The position numbers were made by a program, and so were the translations under genes. Positions 1,092-57,279 of a stretch of DNA of 64,000 nucleotides are shown one piece after another (position 1 is the first letter of the stretch; each line of letters starts with the position of its first letter). A model generated the notes under the pieces. The model had not been told where the DNA came from. It did not search any database and worked only from the letters and a program-made list of their open reading frames with translations. The DNA lies in the NCBI RefSeq assembly GCF_009712425.2, contig NZ_VCJR02000002.1, positions 682,001-746,000 of the forward strand. The letters run 5' to 3'. This stretch comes from Aquisalinus luteolus (GTDB taxonomy: Bacteria; Pseudomonadota; Alphaproteobacteria; Caulobacterales; Parvularculaceae).

Positions 1092-1214
1092 GAAAGCCTC
1101 TTTACTACAGTGCTTTCAGGGCGTGCCATGACAGTCAGGGCGCAAGGCGGGCGCGAGGGAAAACCCCGCAATACCAGCATGCACACCACGCCTTCTTCGG
1201 GCGTTGACTGCCAT

Positions 1215-1378
1215 CGAACCTTCTACCATCCGGACTGTGACCGTCGGCTCTGGAGTCTCACCAGATCCTGCATCCGCGGGATTTCTCCCGTTTCCGCTCG
1301 CGGGCTGACTGGACGGGCTTGGGTACCAAACTCTCCAGATTACCGCCGGTGGGGACTTTCACCCCGCCCCGAAAGTTC
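1215..1378 (-). promoter_or_regulatory. FMN riboswitch (RFN element) upstream of ribD
   Basis: Read on the minus strand the segment shows the hallmark conserved blocks of the FMN aptamer in order: GGGGCGGGGTGAAAGTCCCC, ACCGGCGGTAATC, AGCCCGCGAGCG, GGATCTGGTGAGACTCC, GAGCCGACGGTCACAGTCC and GGATGGTAGAAGG. The order, spacing and direction match the family and it faces ribD. FMN binding is known to switch off transcription or translation of riboflavin genes. The 125 bases between aptamer and start codon are the expression platform; I could not resolve whether it is a terminator or a ribosome-site sequestering stem. Confidence 0.96.
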
Positions 1379-1479
1379 ATTTCTGACCGGGAATATAGGG
1401 ACATGAGGCGGGCTTGGCAATATTGCCGGTCACACGTTGGGGTGGTAGCGTTTCCGGGAGGGACGTGGAGTTCGAGGGT

Positions 1480-42320: not shown

Positions 42321-42448
42321 TGTTCCATACGTCTCAATCTGTCAAGGGCGGCTTCGCCGCCGCGAAGCGGTTTCACCCTTGACTGATTGAGACGTATGGA
42401 AACAATGGCGGCCAAGGCCTGTAAGGCAGGTTCTGCCTTACAGGCCTT
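42321..42448 (-). repeat. Branched palindromic intergenic element, copy 1
   Basis: Minus strand order: hairpin A (42448-42414; arms AAGGCCTGTAAGGCAG / CTGCCTTACAGGCCTT), link GGCCGCCATTG, then large stem B (42404-42321). B has 28-29-base outer arms (TTCCATACGTCTCAAT, then GTCAAGGG) with one mismatch and one bulge. Its loop folds into CCGC-TTC-GCGG and GGCGGC-GAA-GCCGCC, making a Y shape. It follows the phosphotransferase gene and ends 12 bases before the flavoprotein start. The core is shared with copy 2 at 57154-57279. Confidence 0.85.
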
Positions 42449-57153: not shown

Positions 57154-57279
57154 CAAGGTCTGTAAGACAGAAACTGTCTTACAGACCTTGGCCGATTGTC
57201 CTTACACCACCCATTCCTTGTCAAGGATGAACCGCTTCGCGGCGCCGAAGGCGTCCTTGACAATGAATGGGTGGTGTAA
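57154..57279 (+). repeat. Branched palindromic intergenic element, copy 2
   Basis: Plus strand order: hairpin A (57155-57189; arms AAGGTCTGTAAGACAG / CTGTCTTACAGACCTT, loop AAA), link GGCCGATTGTC, then stem B (57202-57279) with 26-base arms (TTACACCACCCATTC, then GTCAAGGA) holding one mismatch. The loop folds into CCGC-TTC-GCGG and CGCC-GAA-GGCG. It lies 48 bases after the Kazal gene and 22 bases before the end of the convergent ABC transporter gene. The core aligns with copy 1 at 42321-42448. Confidence 0.86.

What the first reader, a model, noticed from the sequence alone, without database searches (positions are those of the whole stretch)
57154..57279. A branched palindromic element in two copies whose stems covary
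The copies at 57154-57279 (+) and 42321-42448 (-) share the order hairpin A, link GGCCG..ATTGT, branched stem B. Seen directly: in hairpin A, C/T at position 5 and G/A at position 13 each change together with their pairing partners. In the branch core, CGGC-GAA-GCCG becomes CGCC-GAA-GGCG, again a paired change, while CCGC-TTC-GCGG is unchanged. Three independent compensatory substitutions imply selection on folding, as RNA or as a DNA cruciform. The Y-shaped loop looks like the T-shaped ends of rolling-hairpin replicons, but nothing else links them. I know no described family of this form.
Basis: partly seen in the sequence, partly recalled or inferred. Interest (0 to 1): 0.8.

Follow-up and report, generated by a model that had tools for sequence, protein, structure and literature searches.

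The report
Interspersed Y-tipped palindromic DNA repeat family
The two odd hairpins belong to a family of scattered DNA repeats in alphaproteobacteria whose stem letters change between copies yet stay paired, apparently because the two arms are copied from each other and the tip flips over, so the paired changes need not mean that a folded RNA is being preserved.

Summary
Confirmed, and larger than reported. The window's genome holds 34 sites with the core GTCAAGG…CCTTGAC (backward-pattern control: 1); in 34 of 34 at least 9 of the first 12 outer pairs form. Layout: hairpin A, a link, and a long stem B whose outer 17-20 bp vary between copies while pairing, ending in two small hairpins.

At orthologous loci in a second species (by inference Aquisalinus flavus) arms changed together: double/single changes 4/0, 6/0 and 4/6 at three loci. 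Of 12 locus pairs, three have the tip clearly inverted, four not, five are unresolved. Within the genome tips are 16 forward, 18 flipped.

Coupled arm change plus spacer inversion is the published signature of replication template switching, so covariation alone does not prove selection for an RNA fold. A covariance model finds the family in 24 of 119 relatives (five families of the order) and in 4 of 384 other genomes of the class. No Rfam family fits; the REP transposase family PF01797 is missing from 7 of 8 carriers.

Best reading: a new MITE-like palindromic repeat resembling Caulobacter CIR repeats. Its mobilising enzyme is unknown.

The parts
57154..57190 (+). hairpin A of copy 1 (17 bp, 3-nt loop)
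57191..57201 (+). link, contains GATTGT
57202..57219 (+). left outer arm of stem B
57220..57226 (+). conserved GTCAAGG at the base of the tip
57232..57242 (+). first tip hairpin CCGC-TTC-GCGG
57243..57253 (+). second tip hairpin CGCC-GAA-GGCG
57255..57261 (+). conserved CCTTGAC, partner of GTCAAGG
57262..57279 (+). right outer arm of stem B
42414..42448 (-). hairpin A of copy 2
42384..42401 (-). left outer arm of stem B, copy 2
42377..42383 (-). conserved GTCAAGG, copy 2
42349..42370 (-). two tip hairpins CCGC-TTC-GCGG and CGGC-GAA-GCCG, copy 2
42341..42347 (-). conserved CCTTGAC, copy 2
42323..42340 (-). right outer arm of stem B, copy 2

Best explanation
It is a dispersed, non-coding, MITE-like palindromic repeat (about 130 bp: hairpin A, link, Y-tipped stem B), a new family resembling the CIR type of alphaproteobacterial intergenic repeats, and it acts at the DNA level. 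Shown: many copies at unrelated places; at one window site the same gene pair lies together without the element in two relatives; arms that change together at some orthologous loci; a tip that inverts in place. Inferred: (1) the long inverted arms fold back in single-stranded or cruciform DNA during replication, and template switching copies one arm from the other (keeping stems paired while letters drift) and flips the tip; (2) the most conserved part, the base of the tip (TCAAGG/CCTTGA), and in many Aquisalinus copies a GANTC at the apex of hairpin A, are bound by protein(s) supplied in trans, at least one of which spreads the element; that enzyme is unidentified.
For: Copies: 34 anchored sites, control 1; 34 of 34 have at least 9 of 12 outer pairs and two adjacent tip hairpins. 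For most copies similarity ends about 70-100 bp upstream and 70-80 bp downstream of the start of the tip, so what is dispersed is the element itself. At 57154 the flanking genes are 194 bp apart stop to stop, in G002 7 bp and in G005 34 bp. Orthologous loci, 20 outer pairs, double/single changes: 4/0 (L047/L158), 6/0 (L049/L159), 4/6 (L069/L156). Tip alignment score forward/inverted: L073/L163 2.5/32.5, L070/L157 4/28, L069/L156 5.5/19. Tips 16 forward, 18 flipped in the genome; 10, 5 and 1 undecided in G004. G-T pairs are 17 of 442 outer-stem positions, fewer than other mismatches, 28. Crude gene context: 11 convergent, 8 divergent, 14 co-directional, 1 unresolved; within the 14, element and genes point the same way in 6, opposite in 8 (tallied). 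GANTC at apex A: 15 of 33 own copies with a hairpin A. Template switching gives arm homogenisation and spacer inversion (abstract, PMC8604942).
Against: No mobilising enzyme and no target-site duplication was found; ends are not fixed to the base. The empty site rests on relatives whose matching stretches are 68-76% identical. L069/L156 has 6 single changes, and L157 has lost its outer pairing (3 of 12). Of 12 locus pairs, 4 tips align better forward and 5 are unresolved. Some stem replacements (L049/L159, L072/L164, L074/L161) could be conversion from another copy instead of template switching. The exact 7-mers GTCAAGG and CCTTGAC were demanded by my pattern; of 20 copies read from covariance-model hits in three other families only 5 keep both, most others having an unpaired first base, and a few changed on both sides, so the case for a fixed protein site is weaker than the pattern suggests. 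G-T exceeds A-C (17 to 6 in the genome; 23 to 11 over three sets), a weak hint of one-strand constraint. No replication data.
Confidence: 0.5

Rival explanations
1. A structured RNA (for example a 3' UTR stabiliser, attenuator or small RNA) whose helices are kept by selection.
For: Very strong covariation; stability z about -12; G-T pairs exceed A-C pairs in A-to-B orientation, 17 to 6 in the genome.
Against: Tips are 16 forward and 18 flipped, so a given strand carries either of two reverse-complement tips; inversion in place at three orthologous loci; few G-T pairs; no clear strand bias relative to neighbouring genes (tally, crude); no Rfam family.
Confidence: 0.2
2. Stems are kept by selection on a DNA cruciform or hairpin recognised by a protein, with no need for template switching.
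For: The base of the tip is the most conserved part, with the 7-mers met in several families of the order; orientation neutrality fits a DNA structure.
Against: Double changes without intermediates and inversion of the tip in place are not predicted by selection alone; only 5 of 20 model-found copies elsewhere keep both 7-mers.
Confidence: 0.18
3. A REP/REPIN element moved by a REP-associated tyrosine transposase (RAYT).
For: Dispersed extragenic palindromes.
Against: PF01797 not found at E up to 0.001 in 7 of 8 carrier genomes including G000 and G004; controls rang in 5 of 14 genomes.
Confidence: 0.03
4. Terminal hairpins of a rolling-hairpin replicon or a relic of one.
For: Y-shaped tip and two tip orientations.
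Against: Tens of separate chromosomal copies; no match of one copy (L054) in the phage or plasmid collections.
Confidence: 0.02
5. Transcription terminators.
For: Strong hairpins; 11 of 34 copies between convergent genes (tally).
Against: TTTT within 17-34 bases after the tip in 1 of 34 own copies, and in the mirror direction in 0 of 34; 8 of 34 between divergent genes.
Confidence: 0.05

Closest known systems
CIR (Caulobacter CcrM-associated intergenic repeats, Chen and Shapiro 2003; seen only through passages of the reviews PMC2229807 and PMC10969869)
   Same: Alphaproteobacterial, about 110 bp, intergenic, two palindromic arms joined by a linker, GANTC at or near the terminal loop of one arm.
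   Different: CIR sequences could not be compared; a Y-shaped tip, freely varying stems and tip inversion are not mentioned in the passages read; GANTC is central in hairpin A in 15 of 33 own copies, 4 of 14 in G004, 0 of 11 elsewhere.
RIME and Bru-RS repeats of Rhizobiaceae and Brucella
   Same: Palindromic repeats of about 100 bp in alphaproteobacteria (Bru-RS 103-105 bp, passages of PMC2267715; RIME recalled and from paper listings only).
   Different: Sequences not compared here.
REP/REPIN elements with RAYT
   Same: Dispersed extragenic palindromes.
   Different: No Y1 transposase found in 7 of 8 carriers.
Template-switch hairpins (quasipalindrome correction)
   Same: Arm homogenisation and spacer inversion, as in the abstracts of PMC8604942 and PMC8794818.
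   Different: A mutational mechanism, not a repeat family; here it would act on a whole dispersed family.

Membership tests
CIR | two long inverted repeats joined by a linker | tested here: met
   hairpin of 9 or more pairs, link and stem B in 33 of 34 own copies, though the hairpin of L070 is irregular
CIR | GANTC (CcrM site) at the terminal loop of one arm | tested here: inconclusive
   15 of 33 own, 4 of 14 G004, 0 of 11 others with a hairpin A and an assigned orientation
CIR | sequence similarity to CIR1-CIR4 | not testable with these tools
   original paper not held
REP/REPIN | RAYT (PF01797) in the genome | tested here: not met
   not found in 7 of 8 carrier genomes
MITE | many dispersed short non-coding copies | tested here: met
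   34 sites, similarity confined to the element for most; in the crude ORF map an ORF overlaps the tip in 8 of 34, taken as spurious
MITE | terminal inverted repeats and target-site duplication from a known transposon | tested here: inconclusive
   outer inverted arms in the f3 and f5 copies read; ends and duplications not resolved
Rfam structured RNA | match to a described RNA family | tested here: not met
   nothing at gathering score on the element; permissive hits are weak

The most novel reading that the evidence does not exclude
A DNA-structure mobile element: an unknown protein recognises the Y-tipped hairpin as folded single-stranded DNA and moves it, possibly through a circular or hairpin intermediate. 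This would explain why hairpin A of Aquisalinus seems split into outer inverted arms around stem B in two other families (a circular permutation, seen by eye), while most other letters float freely.
Probability: 0.15. Interest if true: 0.8.

Novelty: new variant of a known kind. Interest (0 to 1): 0.6.

Why it matters
The family is a natural test bed for whether compensatory changes reflect selection on a fold or self-templated repair: arms, tip orientation and orthologous loci can all be scored. It is a warning that covariation statistics can be met by DNA-level arm copying. It may also lead to an unidentified protein that reads or moves such hairpins in alphaproteobacteria.

Tried and rejected
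Rfam with gathering and permissive thresholds: nothing credible on the element; the whalefall-1 hits (below cut-off) are to another palindromic repeat, and the Cis8_sRNA hit lies about 1.2 kb from the element in L275. Plasmid and phage collections, one copy as query: no match. RAYT. The idea that the long upstream module and the Y element are one unit was dropped: of 12 A. flavus stretches with the module's motif, 2 have a Y element within 900 bp downstream, and 3 (L127, L129, L134) hold less than 900 bp downstream; decayed copies could be missed. The second window locus gave no empty site because only the upstream gene matched in relatives. Sequences of G001 and G003 were cut from the wrong place and are not used.

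Rows dropped: 14 of 38 pattern sites in other genomes (1-6 of 12 outer pairs, taken as chance) and 1 of 17 in G004 (L157, 3 of 12); one further G004 pattern site was not fetched because its interior shows no tip hairpins. In the wobble, flip and GANTC counts 9 of 24 other-genome copies had no assigned orientation and were left out. The first, fold-based tip count (14 forward, 16 flipped, 4 undecided; two-branched tip in 24 of 34) was replaced by a direct search for adjacent hairpins (16 and 18; two hairpins in 34 of 34); by eye L062 is flipped, which would make it 15 and 19. Pattern search over the class: 114 of 385 genomes match, by eye mostly at the level of the backward control (not summed); of 29 loci looked at, 1 (L208) had a paired outer stem. 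Genome covariance searches were capped (at most 27 or 8 candidates scored per genome, stricter filters), so their counts are lower bounds. Literature: seven searches showed no description of this element in their listings; only passages (PMC2229807, PMC2267715, PMC10969869) or abstract and outline (PMC8604942, PMC8794818) were read. On rechecking I lowered the best explanation from 0.55 to 0.5, because one search showed that the 7-mer anchors are less fixed than my pattern made them look.

Full report
Observation. The two copies lie at 57154-57279 (+) and 42321-42448 (-) and fold with z of about -12. Beyond them, the outer arm of stem B has different letters in the two copies and pairs in both.

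A family in the genome. The window is G000:C2:682001-746000 of a 3.68 Mb genome. The pattern GTCAAGGN{18,45}CCTTGAC occurs 34 times, the backward control once. All 34 were read with their flanks. Layout: hairpin A (commonly GCCTGTAAGGCAG, 3 nt, CTGCCTTACAGGC, but quite different letters in L059 and L075), a link often ending near ATTGT, the outer arm, GTCAAGG, the tip, CCTTGAC, the second arm. Some copies share arm letters as subfamilies, others have unrelated arms. Two adjacent small hairpins sit at the tip in 34 of 34. Similarity among copies stops just outside for most. Fourteen copies also have a separate long repeat 120-620 bp upstream.

Pairing is real. Own arms pair at 82% (34 copies), 86% (16 copies of G004) and 91% (24 copies elsewhere) of 16 positions; arms taken from different copies pair at 45, 43 and 29%. 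The G004 and other sets were chosen for at least 7 of 12 outer pairs, which inflates their figures; the 34 own copies all passed and none was dropped. On 18 copies 28 of 47 pairs show changes on both sides; no shuffle of 500 reached any measure, and slid structures score 0.05-0.11 against 0.442.

Orthologous loci. G004 is in the same genus and by inference is Aquisalinus flavus. Twelve G000 loci share long flanking sequence, on one or both sides, with a G004 locus that holds an element. Where outer stems can be aligned over 20 pairs: L047/L158 has 4 double and no single changes, including two A-T/T-A exchanges that cannot pass through G-U; L049/L159 has 6 double and no single; L069/L156 has 4 double and 6 single; L046/L167 has 1 single; L073/L163 is identical. 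In L072/L164 and L074/L161 most of the stem is replaced (10 and 11 double, 2 and 3 single), which may be conversion from another copy. Tip orientation over 12 pairs: L163, L156 and L157 align clearly better as the reverse complement (32.5, 19 and 28 against 2.5, 5.5 and 4), four pairs better forward (L047, L072, L065, L064), five are unresolved. Across the genome 16 tips are forward and 18 flipped; in G004 10, 5 and 1 undecided.

What this says about mechanism. Of 442 outer-stem positions, 391 are Watson-Crick, 17 G-T, 6 A-C and 28 other. Coupled arm change and spacer inversion are the two results of template switching between inverted-repeat arms (abstract of PMC8604942); the same process has been proposed to create and maintain hairpins (abstract of PMC8794818). 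That reading needs no RNA function, and a tip that sits in either orientation with near-equal frequency argues against a strand-specific RNA. A crude gene map shows no clear strand preference. Copies are related, so these counts are not independent events.

Conserved letters. GTCAAGG and CCTTGAC were demanded by the pattern, and copies in other families of the order carry them with other stem letters. But of 20 copies that I chose from covariance-model hits in G095, G105 and G096, 5 keep both 7-mers exactly; most of the rest have an unpaired first base (CTCAAGG with CCTTGAC), and a few have changed on both sides, for example GTCAAGT with ACTTGAC. TCAAGG/CCTTGA is the most conserved part, not an invariant one.

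Distribution. The covariance model (18 sequences from G000 and G004) finds matches at E up to 1e-3 in 24 of 119 genomes, in all five families of the order sampled, 22 of them not used for the model. In an even sample of the class 4 of 384 other genomes match at 1e-4; the best, L275, is a complete A plus Y-tipped B. In the 8 copies read from G095 (family f3) and the 6 from G105 (f5) there is no separate hairpin A; similar letters flank B as outer inverted arms (for example CCTTACATCTCTTGG before B and GAGATGTAAGG after it). In most of the 6 copies read from G096 hairpins stand on both sides of B. I read this as a circular permutation of the same parts; this is by eye, without a statistical test.

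Mobility. At the 57154 site the flanking genes are 194 bp apart stop to stop; in G002 and G005 the same pair is 7 and 34 bp apart, so the element was gained in this lineage or lost in theirs. PF01797 is not found in 7 of 8 carrier genomes. I searched for no other transposase family.

Relation to known repeats. The nearest description is the CIR repeat: two arms, a linker, GANTC at an apex, intergenic (passages of PMC2229807, and PMC10969869). GANTC is central in hairpin A in 15 of 33 own copies and 4 of 14 in G004, none of 11 elsewhere. CIR sequences could not be compared, so membership is open. Whether the genome encodes CcrM was not tested.

Verdict. Real, present in five families of the order, and not in Rfam; a new variant of a known kind (dispersed palindromic repeat), with unusually clear cases of coupled arm change and tip inversion. 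The claim of selection on folding is not established by the covariation.

Noticed in passing
L054, L055, L072 and other G000 loci, 120-620 bp upstream of the Y element; not beside the two window copies: A second dispersed repeat of about 290 bp with a promoter-like start (CTTATCCCCGC, then TATAA or TATNCT), a CCGG-TGAGGA-CCGG hairpin and a closing GCCGTG/CACGGGC helix, in two subtypes; beside 14 of 34 Y elements; 12 stretches with its exact 22-base motif in Aquisalinus flavus; no Rfam family in the 8 loci scanned. It may be a multicopy non-coding RNA.
   Followed up: partly
L072:3470-3604, L058:3516-3654: Weak whalefall-1 matches (27.6-30.5 bits, below the 37-bit cut-off) to another palindromic repeat near the elements.
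   Followed up: no
L133: The 22-base motif of the long repeat also occurs once in a MAG labelled Planctomycetaceae, there without the TTATCCCC start; transfer, chance or mis-binning not examined.
   Followed up: no
1214-1380 (-): FMN riboswitch, 100.2 bits.
   Followed up: no
L089, L258: In these two copies from f3 genomes the tip carries three small hairpins instead of two.
   Followed up: no
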